Assembly (NCBI GenBank): GCA_030590185.1
Contig: JAUUZB010000259.1
Span: 1 to 6,396 of the forward strand
Length of the DNA stretch: 6,396 nucleotides
Direction: 5' to 3'
Source of the DNA: Deltaproteobacteria bacterium
Lineage (GTDB): Bacteria > Myxococcota > XYA12-FULL-58-9 > JAUUZB01
Shown: in pieces, positions 1 through 6,396 of the stretch
Numbering within the stretch: the first letter of the stretch is position 1
Layout: each line of letters opens with the position of its first letter
Made by a program: the position numbers and the translations under genes
Notes under the pieces: generated by a model
What the model was told of the DNA's origin: nothing
What the model saw: only the letters and a program-made list of their open reading frames with translations
Database searches by the model: none

Positions 1-206
1 ATCTGGTCGGCGCTGAAGTCGAAGCCGGCCGCCCGCATCTTGGCGATCAACGCCTCAGGGGTGCTCGTGGTGTTGTTGGTGATCAAGCGGGTCGGTACGC
101 CCGCGGCGTGGAGGTCGGCCACAAACTCCACCGCCCCAGGCGTGGGGAGGTACCGCTTGTCGGCCACCAGGGTACCCTCGATGTCGAACAGAACGCCGCG
201 GGCCAT
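1..206 (-). CDS. HAD-superfamily phosphatase, subfamily IIA (HDHD2/LHPP-like), N-terminal part
   Basis: Reading leftward from 206, 68 codons are open to the window edge, so only the N-terminus is visible. It begins MARGVLFDIEGTLV, which is HAD motif I with nucleophile Asp8. After PGAVEFVADLHAAGV comes motif II, LITNNTT (Thr43), and then AKMRAAGFDFS. The spacing and wording fit the HAD-IIA group that includes HDHD2 and LHPP, predicted cytoplasmic phosphohydrolases using Mg2+ and an Asp nucleophile. The second motif I position, Asp in classical DxD phosphatases, is Glu10 here. That site also varies in the relatives I recall (Asn in HDHD2, Ser in LHPP). An in-frame ATG lies 12 bases upstream at 218, but only the ATG at 206 has a Shine-Dalgarno sequence, so I chose 206. 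The substrate is unknown. The gene is divergent from the lipoprotein genes and has no evident functional tie to them. Confidence 0.88.
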   Translation of the reverse strand, partial: MARGVLFDIEGTLVADKRYLPTPGAVEFVADLHAAGVPTRLITNNTTSTPEALIAKMRAAGFDFSADQ

Positions 207-306: not shown

Positions 307-3300
307 ATGGTGAGGACCATGGGGTGCCAATGGTTCTTGGTCGTGGCGAGTCTGGCCGTGGCGAGCGGAGGATGCGGGGGTCTCGCCTTCCTCGACGGCG
401 AGGGGGCATGCGAGGGTGCGTACTGCTACCTGAGCTGTGACGACGACGACGATTGCCTCGGCTCTAGCCGTTGCGCGCTCGGCTATTGCAGCACGGCCGG
501 GGGAGGGGTCGGGATCGGTGGCACTGGCGGCAGCGGCGGCTTCGCCCCCGGCGATCCGGTCATCATGCTCGACGACGGTCGCATCACCTACGGGGACCTC
601 GGTTACCCGCCCGGTGACAGCGGACCCGGCGACGCGGTCGGTCTCGGCGACTACTCGGGTGGCGACTTCGGTCCCGGCGACACGACGATCGTCGGGGATG
701 CCTACCTCAGCGGCGACGTTCTGGTGACCGGCGGCGACGGGGTGATCTGCATGGACCCGGATCTAGACGGCTACTGCGCTTGCTGCCCCTTGGGCCTGGA
801 CTGCCCGGCCATTGGTTGCGCCGACGGCACCCCGGGCTGCGGCGAGTATAACGCCAGCCTGCACCCCGGCGTGGTCGAGGTCTGCGACATGGTGGACAAC
901 AACTGCGACGGTGAGACCGACGAGGGCGTGCTCAACGGTTGCGACAACTGCGCGCCACCAAACTACTGCATCGAGGACACGCCCTGGGGAACGGGGGCCG
1001 GCGGCGTTGGTGGCGGCGGCGGCACCCTGCCCGGTCCGGACGCAGATCCAGGCTCGGGCAGCTGCCTCCCGGATTGCGTGGTGATCGACGGCGTGGTCAC
1101 CAAGGACGAGGACGCCAACGGCTATGGCGCCATCACCCTCTCGGAGGGCACGGTGGCCACCGATTTTGCTTGGGGCGCCAACGAGACCGAGGGCACGGTG
1201 TCGCGGGTCGACACCATCCTCGGGCAGGAGGTCGGCCGCTACGTGACCGTCATGTGGCGCACGGATGATCCCTACCGGCCCTACGTGCAACCCTGGGGGG
1301 CGTCGGGCTCCCGCTGTGCCGAGCCCTCCCGTACCACCATCGACGGCGACGGCAACGCCTTCATCGCCAACCGCGCGGTCAACGGCTACACCGGGCAGTG
1401 CGGCGACAGCACCAACCAACTGGCCGACCCGCATGATTTCGGCTCCCTGACCCAGATCGCCTACTACAACCGCACCATCTGCGATCACACCCGAAACCCG
1501 GCCTTGGTTGGCTGTCAGTGTGCGGACCGCAACGGCAACGGCGTGATCGAGACATCCTTTGACCACGACGCCTCACGGAGCATCGATCTCACCGGCGCCG
1601 TGCTCTCCGGGTGTGTCAGTCTCGATCCGAGCCAATCGCCCTACGAGGTGCAGGACGGCCCCACCTGCGCCACCACCTGCGGTGCCGACGCCGAGTGCGT
1701 CACCGCCCTGGGCCCGCGGCATTTCTGCGTCAACAGCGCCTGCTCCGATCTTCCCCAGCGGGCGGAGTTCCTCGACATCGACGACGAGTGCGTGATGTGG
1801 ACCGTGCGCATCCCCGGCGCTGACACCAACGCCGATCCAACCGCCACGGAGGAATCGGCGCCGCGGGGAATGGCCATCGACAAGGAAGGCTTCGTCTGGG
1901 TCGGCGACAACCAGGCTCCCTACCATTTCTGGAAGATCTTCCCCGAGCCGCCATCGGCGCAGTTCCCCGCCGGCCGAGCCGTTTTTGTCTGCCCCATGGC
2001 CAACGGTTGTTGTCGCGATGGTGATGACTGCACTGTGGTAGCGCCGATCCCCTGGAACGCCGAGTGTCCGCGCACGGCGCGACAGCAGAGCAACCGCAGC
2101 GTGATTCGCACCGACCCGGTGAACGAATGCACCGTGGGGGACCCGTGCTTCTGGACCGCAGATGACAGCTGCCGCATCGACGTGAGCATTGGGCCATACG
2201 GCGCGGTCATCGACTCGGGCGAGTACCACCCCAATGGCTTTGGCTACCTGTGGACCACCGAGCCGGGCGGTGGCCGAATCCAGCGCATCGACACCGAGTC
2301 CGGCGCGGTCTCCCGCGTCTTCCGCGCCACCAATGGATCGGTGTGGGGCAGCGCCTACGGCATCTCCATCGATCACGAGGACCGCCCTTGGCTGGTCAAC
2401 AGCTCCGCTTCGACGCCGGCCACCAGACCGACGGTGTTCCGCTTCAACGCCACCCTGCGTGATGGCACCGACACCCTGGTGTCCAACTTCACCCCGGGCA
2501 CGCCCGCGGACCCAGACTTGACCGCGGCCGAACAAGCCCCCCTGTGGAGCGTCTACTACGCCGACACCGGTGTGCTCCCGGATGGCCGGGCCGACCCCTG
2601 GGGCACCACCAACTGGTACGGCCGCGGCATCACCACCGAGCTATTGGCGCCGGCGAACCCTGGCGATCCAGTCTCCTCGCGGGTCTGGGCGACCTTCAAC
2701 AACGGCTGGGGTGGCGACAACAACTGGATCTTGACCTTCGACGCGGAGACCGGCGTCGAGGGTACCGCCTTTCGCACCAACGCCAGCCCCGGCACCGACT
2801 GCCGGGATCCCATCGGTATCGGCATGGGCTTCGAGGAGAAGGTGTGGGTGGTGGCCCAGAACAGCTCTCAGATGTGTGCCTTCGATCCCTGGGGCCCACT
2901 CGCCGCTGGGGGCGGCATGGAAACGTCGGCGGTCGCGCCCATCGGCATCCACCCTTATACGTACTCGGACTTTACCGGCAGCATCTTCCGGAGCTTCACC
3001 AACCCGGAGGGTCGGTACAAGATCCTGGTGCGGGCTTGCCCCGAGGACTACGAGCTCCTGCGCTGGGGCCGGTTCCTGTGGGACGCGGAGGTGCCGGGCG
3101 AGTCGGTGCTCGAGGTCAAGTTCCGCTTCGGGGACTCGCCCTTCGAAGCGATGGACATCGGCGCCCCGCAGATCATCGGTCAGATCCAAACCGGCCCGCT
3201 GCCGCCGCCCGAGAGCTTCAGCTGGACGCCGGACGTGTTCGAGCAGCGCATCTATTGTGAGATAGAGTTCCGCTTCCTGGCGGACAACCAAGGGCTGGCG

Positions 3301-3351
3301 CCTATACTATATTCAATGGACTCGGCAAGGAACTGCCAGCCGCCGAGTTGA
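307..3351 (+). CDS. Gene A: large Cys-rich secreted lipoprotein-like protein with MopE-type motif and beta-propeller
   Basis: 1014 residues, complete. Residues 1-22 form a hydrophobic export signal before Cys23 (AVASGGC). This is a poor lipobox, but Cys23 aligns with the good one of gene B. In order: a six-Cys module (Cys 35, 40, 44, 50, 56, 61; Dickkopf-N-like spacing, with five Asp in a row at 45-49); a Gly-rich linker (64-79); a Gly-Asp block (81-145); a MopE-type motif (about 148-207); a second Gly-rich linker (229-240); and a propeller from about 275. Blade-like strands are SRTTIDGDGNAFIANR (341), PRGMAIDKEGFVWVGD (519), GRIQRIDTESGAVSRVF (656), YGISIDHEDRPWLVN (684) and IGIGMGFEEKVWVVAQ (836). 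They resemble virginiamycin-B-lyase/NHL propellers. Cys-rich inserts lie at 392-495 and 562-622. PYTYSDFTG (883) opens a conserved C-terminal, probably beta-rich domain. Likely anchored at the cell surface or outer membrane; partner and substrate are unknown. I see no catalytic signature. Confidence 0.93.
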   Translation: MVRTMGCQWFLVVASLAVASGGCGGLAFLDGEGACEGAYCYLSCDDDDDCLGSSRCALGYCSTAGGGVGIGGTGGSGGFAPGDPVIMLDDGRITYGDLGYPPGDSGPGDAVGLGDYSGGDFGPGDTTIVGDAYLSGDVLVTGGDGVICMDPDLDGYCACCPLGLDCPAIGCADGTPGCGEYNASLHPGVVEVCDMVDNNCDGETDEGVLNGCDNCAPPNYCIEDTPWGTGAGGVGGGGGTLPGPDADPGSGSCLPDCVVIDGVVTKDEDANGYGAITLSEGTVATDFAWGANETEGTVSRVDTILGQEVGRYVTVMWRTDDPYRPYVQPWGASGSRCAEPSRTTIDGDGNAFIANRAVNGYTGQCGDSTNQLADPHDFGSLTQIAYYNRTICDHTRNPALVGCQCADRNGNGVIETSFDHDASRSIDLTGAVLSGCVSLDPSQSPYEVQDGPTCATTCGADAECVTALGPRHFCVNSACSDLPQRAEFLDIDDECVMWTVRIPGADTNADPTATEESAPRGMAIDKEGFVWVGDNQAPYHFWKIFPEPPSAQFPAGRAVFVCPMANGCCRDGDDCTVVAPIPWNAECPRTARQQSNRSVIRTDPVNECTVGDPCFWTADDSCRIDVSIGPYGAVIDSGEYHPNGFGYLWTTEPGGGRIQRIDTESGAVSRVFRATNGSVWGSAYGISIDHEDRPWLVNSSASTPATRPTVFRFNATLRDGTDTLVSNFTPGTPADPDLTAAEQAPLWSVYYADTGVLPDGRADPWGTTNWYGRGITTELLAPANPGDPVSSRVWATFNNGWGGDNNWILTFDAETGVEGTAFRTNASPGTDCRDPIGIGMGFEEKVWVVAQNSSQMCAFDPWGPLAAGGGMETSAVAPIGIHPYTYSDFTGSIFRSFTNPEGRYKILVRACPEDYELLRWGRFLWDAEVPGESVLEVKFRFGDSPFEAMDIGAPQIIGQIQTGPLPPPESFSWTPDVFEQRIYCEIEFRFLADNQGLAPILYSMDSARNCQPPS
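547..741 (+). repeat. Gly-Asp repeat block of gene A (residues 81-145)
   Basis: Ten Gly-Asp pairs begin at residues 82, 96, 103, 108, 114, 119, 124, 130, 136 and 143. After the first gap of 14 they recur every 5-7 residues, for example SGPGDAVGLGD and VGDAYLSGDVLVTGGD. The intervening residues are small or hydrophobic (Ser, Thr, Val, Leu). It is not the RTX nonapeptide (GGxGxDxxx). It could be an extended Ca2+-binding stalk or simply an acidic linker; this is inference. Confidence 0.7.
748..927 (+). other. Variant MopE-type 'putative metal-binding' motif in gene A
   Basis: Residues 148-207 contain DPDLDGY (150-156), then a dense run of cysteines (157, 159, 160, 166, 171, 178), then SLHPGVVEVCDMVDNNC and DGETDEG. 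The tail matches the MopE-type motif (PGAxExCDGxDNDCDGxxDE) common in deltaproteobacterial surface proteins. The usual DCDD just before the tail is GCGE here (178-180 region), so part of the acidic ligand set is missing. The metal-binding role is taken from the family name and was not shown for this variant. Confidence 0.75.
3303..3310 (+). promoter_or_regulatory. Possible embedded -10 element for gene B within the gene A tail
   Basis: TATACTAT lies in the last codons of gene A, about 105 bases before gene B's ATG. TATACT matches the sigma70 -10 consensus at 5 of 6 positions. It falls in an AT-rich patch (3303-3317) unlike the surrounding coding sequence. No good -35 box is visible 16-18 bases upstream, so the call is tentative. 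The alternative is that A and B are co-transcribed. Confidence 0.25.
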
Positions 3352-3369
3352 ACGTGCCTGCGGCTGGTA
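3334..3369 (+). other. Inverted repeat spanning the gene A stop codon
   Basis: CCAGCCGC (3336-3343) is the exact reverse complement of GCGGCTGG (3360-3367). The stem extends outward by a G-T wobble (3335/3368) and a T-A pair (3334/3369), with a 16-base loop that includes the TGA at 3349-3351. No T-run follows (the next bases are AATAGGGG), so it is not a standard intrinsic terminator. It could be an mRNA-stabilising or attenuating hairpin between A and B, or chance in GC-rich DNA. Confidence 0.4.
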
Positions 3370-3403
3370 AATAGGGGTAGACTTGGCGAACCACGCGACG
3401 TTC

Positions 3404-3409
3404 GAGGAG
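3404..3409 (+). promoter_or_regulatory. Ribosome binding site of gene B
   Basis: GAGGAG ends six bases before the ATG at 3416. The rest of the 64-base gap (3352-3415) holds the right arm of the inverted repeat and no other clear signal. The short gap and same orientation are compatible with translation from a shared A-B transcript. Confidence 0.75.
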
Positions 3410-3415
3410 AATCTA

Positions 3416-6396
3416 ATGGTGCGAAGGAGGCAGGTGTCAGCCCAACCGGTGGTCGCCCTGGGGATCGGTCTGATCTTGGCTCTGGCCGGCTGCAGCGGCA
3501 CCGCCTTTCTCGACCCGGCGCAGCTCTGCCTGGGTCCCTTTTGCGACGAGGCCTGCGACACCGACTACGACTGCCCGCCTACCTCCTTTTGCCAACAGGG
3601 CTGGTGCAGCACCCTCGGCGGCGGTGACACCAACAGCGGCGGGGGCGGCACCGGCGGCGGGGGCGGCACCGGCGGGTTGGCCCCGGGCGACCTGATCATT
3701 CTCCTCGACGACTGGGGTGTCACCTGGGGCGACGCCCCCTCGGTGGGTGGCGACAGCGGGCCCGGTGACGTCATGCTCACCGGGGACGAGAATCTCGGCG
3801 GTGACACGGCCGGAGGGGGCGATGCCCCGAGCGGCGACGCCACGCTGACCGGCGACGTGCTGGTCACCGGCGACGCAGGGGTGGTCTGCATGGATCCAGA
3901 CCTGGACGGCTATTGCGACTGCTGCCCCCTGGGCCCGGACTGCCCGGCCGCTGGGTGCACCAGCGGCAACCCGGGCTGCGGCGAGTACGACGTCAGCCTG
4001 AACCCCGGCGTGCCCGAGGCCTGCGACATGCAGGACAACAACTGCGACGGTCAGATCGACGAGGGGGTGCTCAACGGTTGCGGCAACTGCGCGCCACCCG
4101 AGTTCTGCGTCGAGGAGACGCCCTGGACGGTCGGCGCTGGCGGTGCCGGCGGCGGGGGTGGCTCCCTCCCGGGACCGGACGCGACTCCGACGGCGGGCAA
4201 CTGCATCCCCGACTGCCTGGTGATCGACGGGGTGATCGCCGTGGATGATGACGGCGACGGTTATGGCGCCATCACCATCGCCGGCGGGACGGTGGCCACC
4301 GACTTCGCCTACGGCGCTAATGAGATCGAGGGCACCGTGTCGCGGGTGGACACCATCCGCGGCCAAGAGGTGGGTCGTTACGTCTCGGTCATGTGGCGTG
4401 ACGACGACTACCGCCGGCCTTACGTGCAGCCCTGGGGTGCCTCCGGATCCCGCTGCGCCGAGCCCTCACGGACCACGGTCGACGGCGACGGGAACGCCTA
4501 CGTGGCCAACCGCGCCGTCAGTGGCTACCAGGGGGACTGCACCACTGAGACGGTGGAGCCGCGACTCAACGGCTCGGTCACCAAGATCGCCTACTTCAAC
4601 GCGACCATCTGCGACCACACCCGCAACGCGGGGCTGGTCGGCTGCCAGTGCGCCGACATGAACGGCAACGGCGTGATCGAAACCTCCTTCGACCACGACG
4701 GTAGTCGGTCGATCGACATCTCGGGCACGGTCCTCTCCGGCTGCGTCAGCCTCGACCCGAGCCAGGTGCCCCACGAGGTTTTGAACGGCCCCACCTGCAG
4801 CACCACCTGCGTCACCGACGTCGAATGCGTCACCGCCCTAGGCGCCCAGCATTTCTGCGTTGGCGGTGGCTGCTCCGACCTGCCGCAACGAGCGGAGTTC
4901 CTCGGGGTCGACGATGAGTGCCTCATGTGGACCCTGCGCATCCCGGGCGACGACACCAACGCCAGCCCGGACGCCGCCGGCAGCGCTTCGGCCCGCGGCA
5001 TGGCGGTCGACCGGGACGGCCACGTGTGGGTGGGCGACGACACCGCGCCCTGGCACTTCTGGAAGATCTACCCGGAGCCGGCCTCCGCCTCATTCCCGCG
5101 CGGTCGCGGGGTATTCGTTTGTCCCCACGCCGCCGGCTGTTGTCGCGACGCCGACGATTGCACCGCCGGCGACGTGCCGATCCCGTGGAACGCGGAGTGT
5201 CCGCTCACCCCGCGGGACGAGAGCAACCGGGCTGTCATTCGAACCGATCCGGCCACCGAGTGCACGGTGGGGGATCTGTGCGTCTGGACCGTGGACAGCA
5301 CCTGCCGGGTGCCGGTGACGGCGCAGCCCTACGGGGCGGTCATCGACTCCGGTGAGAGTCACCCGAACGGCTACGGCTACCTGTGGACCACGCGTTACAA
5401 TGAAGGCTACCTGCAGCGCATCGACACCCAAACCGGCGAGGTCTCCAAGCGCTTCCGCGCCACCAACGGTGCGGTGTGGGGGAGCTCCTACGGCATCACC
5501 ATCGACCACGAGGATCGCCCGTGGATCGTGCAGAGTCACACCACCTCCATGGGCACCATGCCGGTGGTCATGCGTTTCAACGCCACCGCTCGGGACATCA
5601 ACGGCAACCTGATCGCCGCTTTTGACCCGGGCACCTCCTCCGACCCCGACCCCTCGGCGGCGTTGCAGGCGGCGTTGTGGAGCATCTTCCCCGCCGAAAC
5701 CGGAACCCTGCCGGACGGTCGCACCAACCCTTGGGGCGCGACCAACTGGTATGGGCGAGGCATCACCACCGAGCTCATGCCGCCGGCCATCCCCGGCGAT
5801 CCGGTCAGCTCCCGCATCTGGGCGAATTTCAACGACGGCTGGGGCGGCGACAACAACTGGATCGTCAGCTTCGACGCGGTGAGCGGCAGCGAGTACACCG
5901 ACGTGCGAACCAACGTCAGCCCGGGCGACGCCACCGATCCCTGCCGGGATCCGATCGGCATCGGCATGGGCTTCGAGCAGAAGGTCTGGGTCGTCAACCA
6001 GAACAGCTGGTCCATGTGCGCCTTTGATCCCACCGACCTCTCTGGCGGCAACGGCATGGTCCGTATCCACCACGCCCCCATCGGCCCCAAGCCCTACACC
6101 TACTCCGATTTCACCGGCAGCATCTTCCGGAGCTTCACCAACCCGGAGGGCCGCTACAAGATCCTGGTGGAGGCCTGCCCCGAGGACTACGACCTGTTGC
6201 GTTGGGGACCGTTCACCTGGGACGCTGACGTGCCCGGCAACTCGGTGCTCGAGGTGAAGTTCCGTTTTGGCGACACCGTGTTCGAGGCGATGGACATCGG
6301 CGCCGCGCAGATCACCGGGCAGGTCCAAACCGGCCCCTTGCCGCCGCCCGAGAGTTTTTCCTGGACGCCGGACACCTTCGAGACCCGAGTCTACTG
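3416..6396 (+). CDS. Gene B: lipoprotein paralogue of gene A, C-terminus cut by the window edge
   Basis: 993 complete codons plus two bases, open to the window end. The start MVRRRQVSAQ leads into a hydrophobic segment ending LILALAGC, a canonical lipobox. It predicts lipidation at Cys26 with Ser at +2, which favours outer-membrane sorting. The order matches gene A: six-Cys module (38-64), Gly linker (67-87), Gly-Asp block (90-154), MopE-type motif (158-217, ending CDMQDNNCDGQIDEG), Gly linker (239-250), DDDGDGYG (277-284), a propeller with blades such as SRTTVDGDGNAYVANR (351) and ARGMAVDRDGHVWVGD (526), Cys-rich inserts, and PYTYSDFTG (893) opening the C-terminal domain. A possible Ca2+ loop, DMNGNGVIETSFD, sits at 414-426. 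Alignment to gene A leaves about 30 residues missing at the C-terminus. RRRQV near the start is not a Tat motif. Function is unknown; likely a surface-exposed binding or scaffold protein. Confidence 0.93.
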   Translation, partial: MVRRRQVSAQPVVALGIGLILALAGCSGTAFLDPAQLCLGPFCDEACDTDYDCPPTSFCQQGWCSTLGGGDTNSGGGGTGGGGGTGGLAPGDLIILLDDWGVTWGDAPSVGGDSGPGDVMLTGDENLGGDTAGGGDAPSGDATLTGDVLVTGDAGVVCMDPDLDGYCDCCPLGPDCPAAGCTSGNPGCGEYDVSLNPGVPEACDMQDNNCDGQIDEGVLNGCGNCAPPEFCVEETPWTVGAGGAGGGGGSLPGPDATPTAGNCIPDCLVIDGVIAVDDDGDGYGAITIAGGTVATDFAYGANEIEGTVSRVDTIRGQEVGRYVSVMWRDDDYRRPYVQPWGASGSRCAEPSRTTVDGDGNAYVANRAVSGYQGDCTTETVEPRLNGSVTKIAYFNATICDHTRNAGLVGCQCADMNGNGVIETSFDHDGSRSIDISGTVLSGCVSLDPSQVPHEVLNGPTCSTTCVTDVECVTALGAQHFCVGGGCSDLPQRAEFLGVDDECLMWTLRIPGDDTNASPDAAGSASARGMAVDRDGHVWVGDDTAPWHFWKIYPEPASASFPRGRGVFVCPHAAGCCRDADDCTAGDVPIPWNAECPLTPRDESNRAVIRTDPATECTVGDLCVWTVDSTCRVPVTAQPYGAVIDSGESHPNGYGYLWTTRYNEGYLQRIDTQTGEVSKRFRATNGAVWGSSYGITIDHEDRPWIVQSHTTSMGTMPVVMRFNATARDINGNLIAAFDPGTSSDPDPSAALQAALWSIFPAETGTLPDGRTNPWGATNWYGRGITTELMPPAIPGDPVSSRIWANFNDGWGGDNNWIVSFDAVSGSEYTDVRTNVSPGDATDPCRDPIGIGMGFEQKVWVVNQNSWSMCAFDPTDLSGGNGMVRIHHAPIGPKPYTYSDFTGSIFRSFTNPEGRYKILVEACPEDYDLLRWGPFTWDADVPGNSVLEVKFRFGDTVFEAMDIGAAQITGQVQTGPLPPPESFSWTPDTFETRVY
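3638..3673 (+). repeat. Perfect 18-bp tandem duplication in the gene B Gly-rich linker
   Basis: The 18-base unit GGCGGGGGCGGCACCGGC occurs at 3638-3655 and again without mismatch at 3656-3673. It is in frame and encodes GGGGTG twice (residues 75-86). Gene A lacks the extra copy: its linker from the last module Cys to the first Gly-Asp is exactly six residues shorter. This looks like in-frame slippage or duplication in a flexible linker. Confidence 0.85.
3683..3877 (+). repeat. Gly-Asp repeat block of gene B (residues 90-154)
   Basis: Ten Gly-Asp pairs begin at residues 91, 105, 112, 117, 123, 129, 135, 140, 146 and 152. The number is the same as in gene A, and the first-to-last distance is also the same (61 residues), although the middle residues differ greatly. 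Examples are GDVMLTGDENLGGD and GDATLTGDVLVTGD. Confidence 0.7.
3887..4066 (+). other. Variant MopE-type 'putative metal-binding' motif in gene B
   Basis: Residues 158-217 repeat the gene A pattern: DPDLDGYCDCC, cysteines at 176, 181 and 188, GCGEYDVSLNPGVPEACD, then DNNCDGQIDEG. All twelve cysteines from 158 to 231 align with those of gene A. The same GCGE replacement of the family's usual DCDD is present, so the change predates the duplication or is kept by selection. Confidence 0.75.

What the first reader, a model, noticed from the sequence alone, without database searches (positions are those of the whole stretch)
307..6396. Tandem pair of ~1000-residue, same-architecture surface lipoproteins, possibly part of a longer array
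Genes A and B align from the lipid Cys to the window edge. Outside the signal peptide and first Gly linker the only indels I found are one to a few residues. The module order (six-Cys module, Gly-Asp block, MopE-type motif, Cys-rich Vgb/NHL-like propeller, conserved C-terminal domain) is one I cannot match to a characterised family. The gap between them is only 64 bp, and gene B is cut by the edge, so further copies may follow. Surface-diversified paralogue arrays often serve adhesion, recognition or prey contact; that role is inference.
Basis: partly seen in the sequence, partly recalled or inferred. Interest (0 to 1): 0.7.

Follow-up and report, generated by a model that had tools for sequence, protein, structure and literature searches.

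The report
Duplicated bacterial surface propeller protein genes
Two neighbouring, related genes encode large proteins that are probably fixed to the outside of a Myxococcota-like bacterium and shaped like seven-bladed propellers rich in cysteines; they look like binding proteins, and relatives in their uncharacterised family have repeatedly been copied side by side.

Summary
Gene A (307-3351, 1014 aa) and gene B (3416 to the edge, 993 aa held) are head-to-tail paralogues, 68% identical, 64 bp apart, sharing all 44 comparable mature cysteines. The model of A is a seven-bladed beta-propeller (282-892) with cysteine-rich insertions and a DxNxNG loop, a C-terminal jelly-roll, and an N-terminal Cys module, disordered Gly/Asp tether and PF11617 motif. 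It belongs to a large uncharacterised Myxococcota family (annotated 'Vgb family', 'MopE-related', 'streptogramin lyase'); A and B fall in a ~1000-residue, cysteine-rich branch with six other members found. A and B are sisters relative to the nearest relative, so the duplication is lineage-specific. Tandem copying recurs in the wider family: two kinds of pair and an array of five. A third copy here is untestable (no genome held). dN/dS is about 0.30: conserved, not broadly diversified. Best explanation: outer-membrane-anchored surface binding proteins, probably not enzymes; ligand unknown. Vgb-lyase or MopE-copper chemistry is not supported, though an enzyme is not excluded. A tailed-phage lineage carries a lipoprotein of this family.

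The parts
307..3351 (+). Gene A, 1014-aa surface propeller protein
   Evidence: Open frame; 41% identical full-length relatives
3416..6396 (+). Gene B, tandem paralogue of A, cut by the window edge about 31 residues before its expected end
   Evidence: 681/997 identical to A
3352..3415 (+). 64-bp spacer with an AGGAG before the ATG of B; no terminator-like site in it
   Evidence: Sequence; scan, which also shows one weak promoter-like site at 3281-3308 inside the end of A
307..375 (+). A: signal peptide and candidate lipid Cys C23 (non-canonical lipobox SGGC)
   Evidence: Sequence; failed the consensus; C23 column at least 90% Cys in 78 members
3416..3493 (+). B: signal peptide and lipid Cys C26 (lipobox LAGC)
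   Evidence: Passed the consensus
409..489 (+). A: six-Cys module, residues 35-61
   Evidence: Cys positions; all six kept in B
499..714 (+). A: disordered Gly/Asp tether, residues 65-136
   Evidence: pLDDT below 50
838..924 (+). A: PF11617 motif (Pfam name Cu-binding_MopE), residues 178-206
   Evidence: 37.0 bits, cut-off 27
3977..4063 (+). B: PF11617 motif, residues 188-216
   Evidence: 30.8 bits, cut-off 27
1150..2982 (+). A: seven-bladed beta-propeller, residues 282-892, with Cys-rich insertions
4289..6121 (+). B: propeller by alignment to A
   Evidence: Alignment; B was not modelled
1525..1563 (+). A: D-x-N-x-N-G loop (residues 407-419), probable Ca2+ site (inference)
   Evidence: D407, N409, N411, G412, S417, D419 at least 90% conserved; pattern in 72 of 78 members
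2956..3348 (+). A: YTYSDFTG motif and C-terminal jelly-roll domain, residues 884-1014
6095..6394 (+). B: YTYSDFTG motif and most of the C-terminal domain
   Evidence: 86% identical to A there

Best explanation
A and B are lineage-specific tandem duplicates, probably one operon, of an outer-membrane-anchored surface binding protein. A lipidated Cys and a ~70-residue disordered Gly/Asp tether hold the folded part away from the membrane; a Cys module and a PF11617 knot form the stalk; the head is a seven-bladed Vgb/NHL/YVTN-type propeller, stiffened by disulphides and a DxNxNG (probably Ca2+) loop, followed by a jelly-roll sandwich. It works by binding a ligand or a neighbouring surface (adhesion or recognition) rather than by catalysis; the second copy adds dose or a second specificity. 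Shown: the pair, its homology, sisterhood of A and B, folds by model. Inferred: export, lipidation, disulphides, Ca2+, operon, ligand binding.
Against: No ligand, localisation or expression data. Four of seven long-type members with a start, A among them, failed the lipobox consensus. Foldseek's best PDB rows are glycoside hydrolases, and H641 is invariant in all 8 long-type rows, so an enzyme is possible. The jelly-roll matches are tied among unrelated proteins. A weak promoter-like site upstream of B leaves the operon open.
Confidence: 0.5

Rival explanations
1. They are secreted, surface-anchored enzymes (lactonase, lyase or glycosidase-like) using the propeller's central face, as the annotation 'streptogramin lyase' suggests.
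Against: Pfam Vgb_lyase is not matched by A or B; no His is 90% conserved in 78 members and the best column has 37 of 78, while the structure title of 2z2p calls the H270A enzyme inactive. The catalytic positions were not mapped residue by residue.
Confidence: 0.17
2. They are substrate-capturing partners of an outer-membrane transporter, as BtuG2 is for vitamin B12.
Against: No transporter gene in the 6.4 kb seen, which is little; many propellers match as well or better.
Confidence: 0.1
3. They are structural coat or matrix proteins, given a wall- or S-layer-like role by their Cys and Ca2+ sites.
Against: The match is to a fold, and the S-layer protein's PKD domain arrangement is not seen; copy number is modest.
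Confidence: 0.1
4. They are copper-scavenging proteins like MopE of Methylococcus, as the Pfam name of PF11617 suggests.
For: PF11617 above its cut-off in both.
Against: MopE's copper ligands are His132, His203 and kynurenine from Trp130 (PMC3423442, passages); the family profile meets MopE only over chain residues 6-51, at E 0.0096. The one His in A's PF11617 stretch is Asn in B.
Confidence: 0.05

Closest known systems
Uncharacterised Myxococcota/'Deltaproteobacteria' propeller proteins annotated 'Vgb family', 'MopE-related', 'streptogramin lyase'
   Same: Whole-length homology over propeller and C-terminal domain, YTYSDFTG motif, DxNxNG loop; PF11617 in many
   Different: Most listed are 570-720 aa; five counted have 5-25 Cys, against 45-59 in five long-type relatives, 47 in A and 44 in the part of B held
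Virginiamycin B lyase (Vgb), PDB 2z2p/2z2n
   Different: Vgb_lyase profile not matched by A or B; no family-wide His; added stalk, tether and jelly-roll
YVTN propeller of an archaeal surface-layer protein, PDB 1l0q
   Different: No Cys-rich insertions known to me there; its PKD domain is not matched
BtuG2 surface lipoprotein, PDB 8bai
   Different: Chain of 320 residues, so no stalk modules or jelly-roll; no transporter gene seen in the window
MopE of Methylococcus capsulatus, PDB 2vov
   Same: PF11617-type stretch
   Different: Copper-site residues lie outside the matched stretch

Membership tests
Myxococcota Vgb/MopE-related propeller family (as aligned in A2) | Homology across propeller and C-terminal domain | tested here: met
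   120 listed of 150 proteins at E 0.001 or better; five at 36-41% identity over 66-99% of the query
Myxococcota Vgb/MopE-related propeller family (as aligned in A2) | YTYSDFTG motif before the C-terminal domain | tested here: met
   Invariant columns in A2; in A and B
Virginiamycin B lyase | Seven-bladed propeller fold | tested here: met
Virginiamycin B lyase | Match to Pfam Vgb_lyase (PF24684) | tested here: not met
   Not among the families reported for A or B at E up to 1
Virginiamycin B lyase | Catalytic His (H270 in the S. aureus enzyme) | tested here: inconclusive
   No family-wide His, but positions not mapped; H641 invariant in 8 long-type rows
MopE | PF11617 motif | tested here: met
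   37.0 and 30.8 bits, cut-off 27
MopE | Copper site Kyn130/His132/His203 | tested here: inconclusive
   Profile match covers chain residues 6-51 only; site from PMC3423442 passages
NHL-repeat proteins | Pfam NHL above cut-off | tested here: not met
   B 16.9 bits, cut-off 20; not reported for A. Two relatives, P0005 and P0010, score 20.4 and 21.1
Bacterial lipoproteins | Lipobox with Cys | tested here: inconclusive
   B passes, A fails the consensus; lipidation itself not testable
BtuG-type transporter partners | Cognate transporter gene nearby | not testable with these tools
   Only 6.4 kb of contig and no genome held

The most novel reading that the evidence does not exclude
A and B belong to a Myxococcota family of tether-mounted, disulphide-stapled propeller receptors that expands by tandem duplication into small arrays of surface-recognition proteins with separate specificities (prey, kin or phage), and a phage lineage has captured one member as a surface lipoprotein that remodels the infected host's surface, for example to exclude other phages.
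Probability: 0.15. Interest if true: 0.75.

Novelty: new variant of a known kind. Interest (0 to 1): 0.42.

Why it matters
In a phylum sample the family is in 12 of 57 genomes at E 1e-20 or better, one of them the chosen centre; it is multi-copy, no paper found here characterises it, and its names (antibiotic lyase, copper protein) are probably misleading. Showing that its members form tandem pairs and arrays, share a signature C-terminal domain, and include a phage-carried lipoprotein would give a concrete entry to contact, predation or phage entry in Myxococcota.

Tried and rejected
Genome-contig scan with A: 3 loci, all weak. Phylum of G001 with A1: 15 of 377 genomes at E 1e-25 or better, all partial matches, only 2 candidates scored per genome. 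The same around G002 returned overlapping genomes, 3 of 377 at E 1e-30. Classes of G186 (0 of 57) and G072 (0 of 52) at E 1e-35; the tool warns that such empty answers show nothing without a known positive. Protein search with the A1 profile was swamped and missed known relatives, listing 3 proteins; the search from P0006 missed P0004, so the count of long-type members is a lower bound. No match to A in 72,556 plasmid records, nor to the phage homologue in 50,697 phage records. Six paper searches listed nothing that I recognised as characterising this family; I saw listings, and passages of two papers.

Rejected or left open: copper protein (site not reached by the match); Vgb lyase membership (Pfam model not matched); assembly duplication (68% identity, dS 0.77); broad diversifying selection (dN/dS about 0.30). 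Gene conversion of the PF11617 tract: same-codon 42 of 51 against 34.2 expected, Fisher p 0.0036, region chosen after the fact; left open. The lipobox test was uninterpretable on most array genes because their starts are unsure: 3 of 11 gave a site, one of them implausibly deep. C-terminal fold matches are tied among unrelated jelly-rolls, so no family is named.

Full report
What is there. The window holds the 5' end of a divergent HAD-IIA hydrolase on the minus strand (Pfam Hydrolase_6, E 5.8e-13), then gene A (307-3351) and gene B (3416 to the edge) on the plus strand, 64 bp apart. A is 1014 aa; 993 aa of B are held, about 31 short by comparison with A. BLASTP gives 681 of 997 columns identical (68%) with 18 gap positions. 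All 44 Cys of A between C23 and C911 are Cys in B, and no Cys of B faces another residue of A. Identity is 84.5% in residues 881-983, 47.5% in the Cys module and 41% in the signal peptide. dN is 0.234 and dS 0.77 (ratio about 0.30), so both copies seem held by purifying selection. No terminator-like site lies in the spacer, but one weak promoter-like site lies at 3281-3308 in the end of A; an operon is likely, not shown.

Relatives. phmmer of residues 255-1014 gave 150 proteins at E 0.001 or better, 120 listed, among 7992 scored candidates. Six besides A are of the long type: P0003 (a fragment, 60% identical) and P0004-P0008 (36-41%). A search from P0006 added no further long member among its 16 hits at E 1e-30, but it missed P0004, so the count is a lower bound; B itself is not in the list. 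Most others are 570-720 aa. Sixteen rows of that list show an organism name: 15 are Myxococcota or 'Deltaproteobacteria' (genus placement from my own knowledge), 1 is 'Pseudomonadota'. A YTYSDFTG-like motif is in 77 of 78 aligned members and the DxNxNG pattern in 72 of 78; five long-type relatives have 45-59 Cys (A 47; the held part of B 44) against 5-25 in the five other members counted, one of them the phage protein. A lipobox-like start is in 52 of 75 members with usable starts against a mean of 3.3 (maximum 9) in 200 shuffles, but A, P0006, P0007 and P0008 failed it while B, P0004 and P0005 passed.

Tandem copying. Six genomes, chosen because they had matched, hold 3 to 10 matches above 150 bits each (my count; some bear in-frame stops). 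G025 has five on one strand within 11.5 kb (C18:198306-209799), with other reading frames, one with a Walker-A-like stretch by eye, between two of them; G190, G001 and G003 each have an adjacent same-strand pair. Of the 20 stretches fetched, two hold strong same-strand pairs (L055, L056, chosen because one search had shown them), two hold divergent pairs (L038, L042), and L038 and L039 also have weak same-strand neighbours. In a phylum sample, 12 of 57 genomes have the family at E 1e-20 or better (11 of 56 without the chosen centre G001); by coordinates, G001 and G025 show close same-strand neighbours and G028 two genes about 3 kb apart; at most 19 candidates were scored per genome. A maximum-likelihood tree of 28 rows joins A and B (99/97) with P0003 next (100/100), the five G025 genes (100/100) and the G190 pair (100/99), and shows the G001 and G003 pairs as orthologous (100/99 each), so older than the split of those genomes. 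Read simply, tandem duplication occurred at least four separate times in this sample, the window pair being one; homogenisation of older arrays by gene conversion could mimic part of this.

Function. No His is invariant or 90% conserved in 78 members, the best His column has 37 of 78, and Vgb_lyase is not matched by A or B. That weakens lyase chemistry for the family, but H641 is invariant in the 8 long-type rows, so an enzyme is not excluded in this branch. PF11617's Pfam name suggests copper; in MopE the copper ligands are His132, His203 and kynurenine130 (PMC3423442, passages read), while the family profile meets MopE only over chain residues 6-51 at E 0.0096. I commit to a surface binding protein, at 0.5.

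Side result. Five IMG/VR contigs carry a homologue. On the 174.6-kb contig it is complete (681 aa, passes the lipobox test, 547 bits to the family HMM) and ends 6 kb before a terminase large subunit and a portal gene (PHROGs). One other contig aligns to it over most of the held stretch at 82-90% identity in pieces; the other three align to it in this gene only. The T5 lipoprotein Llp blocks its phage's receptor (PMC9586334, passages read); that the propeller lipoprotein acts likewise is speculation.

Verdict. Real, lineage-specific tandem duplicates in a known but uncharacterised family; a larger, more cysteine-rich variant of it. Not categorically new. The longer array is plausible from relatives but untested here.

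Noticed in passing
L033:573-2618 (L060), with L034-L037, L061, L062: A tailed-phage lineage carries a 681-aa lipoprotein of the same propeller family, 6 kb from its terminase and portal genes; the gene lies at or near a contig end in all five contigs, truncated in four. Possible surface remodelling or superinfection exclusion; not in the 50,697 phage records searched.
   Followed up: partly
window 787-996 (A residues 161-230) against the matching part of B: The PF11617 tract has unusually low synonymous divergence between A and B (pS 0.08-0.20 in 40-codon windows against 0.48 overall), hinting at local gene conversion.
   Followed up: partly
L058 (G025:C18:194000-213900): Array of five family genes on one strand in a 3.3-Mb genome, about 40-55% identical to each other.
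   Followed up: partly
L038, L042 (also L040, L041, L043): Longer versions of the family, open frames of 1461-1717 aa; in L038 and L042 they stand divergently beside a second family gene.
   Followed up: no
P0008, about residues 700-860: This relative has extra Cys-rich modules inserted inside the propeller (59 Cys in all), as if the small Cys module multiplies as a loop insert.
   Followed up: no
window 3-206 (or 218), minus strand: 5' end of a HAD-IIA (NagD-like) hydrolase gene, divergent from gene A; no evident link to the pair.
   Followed up: no
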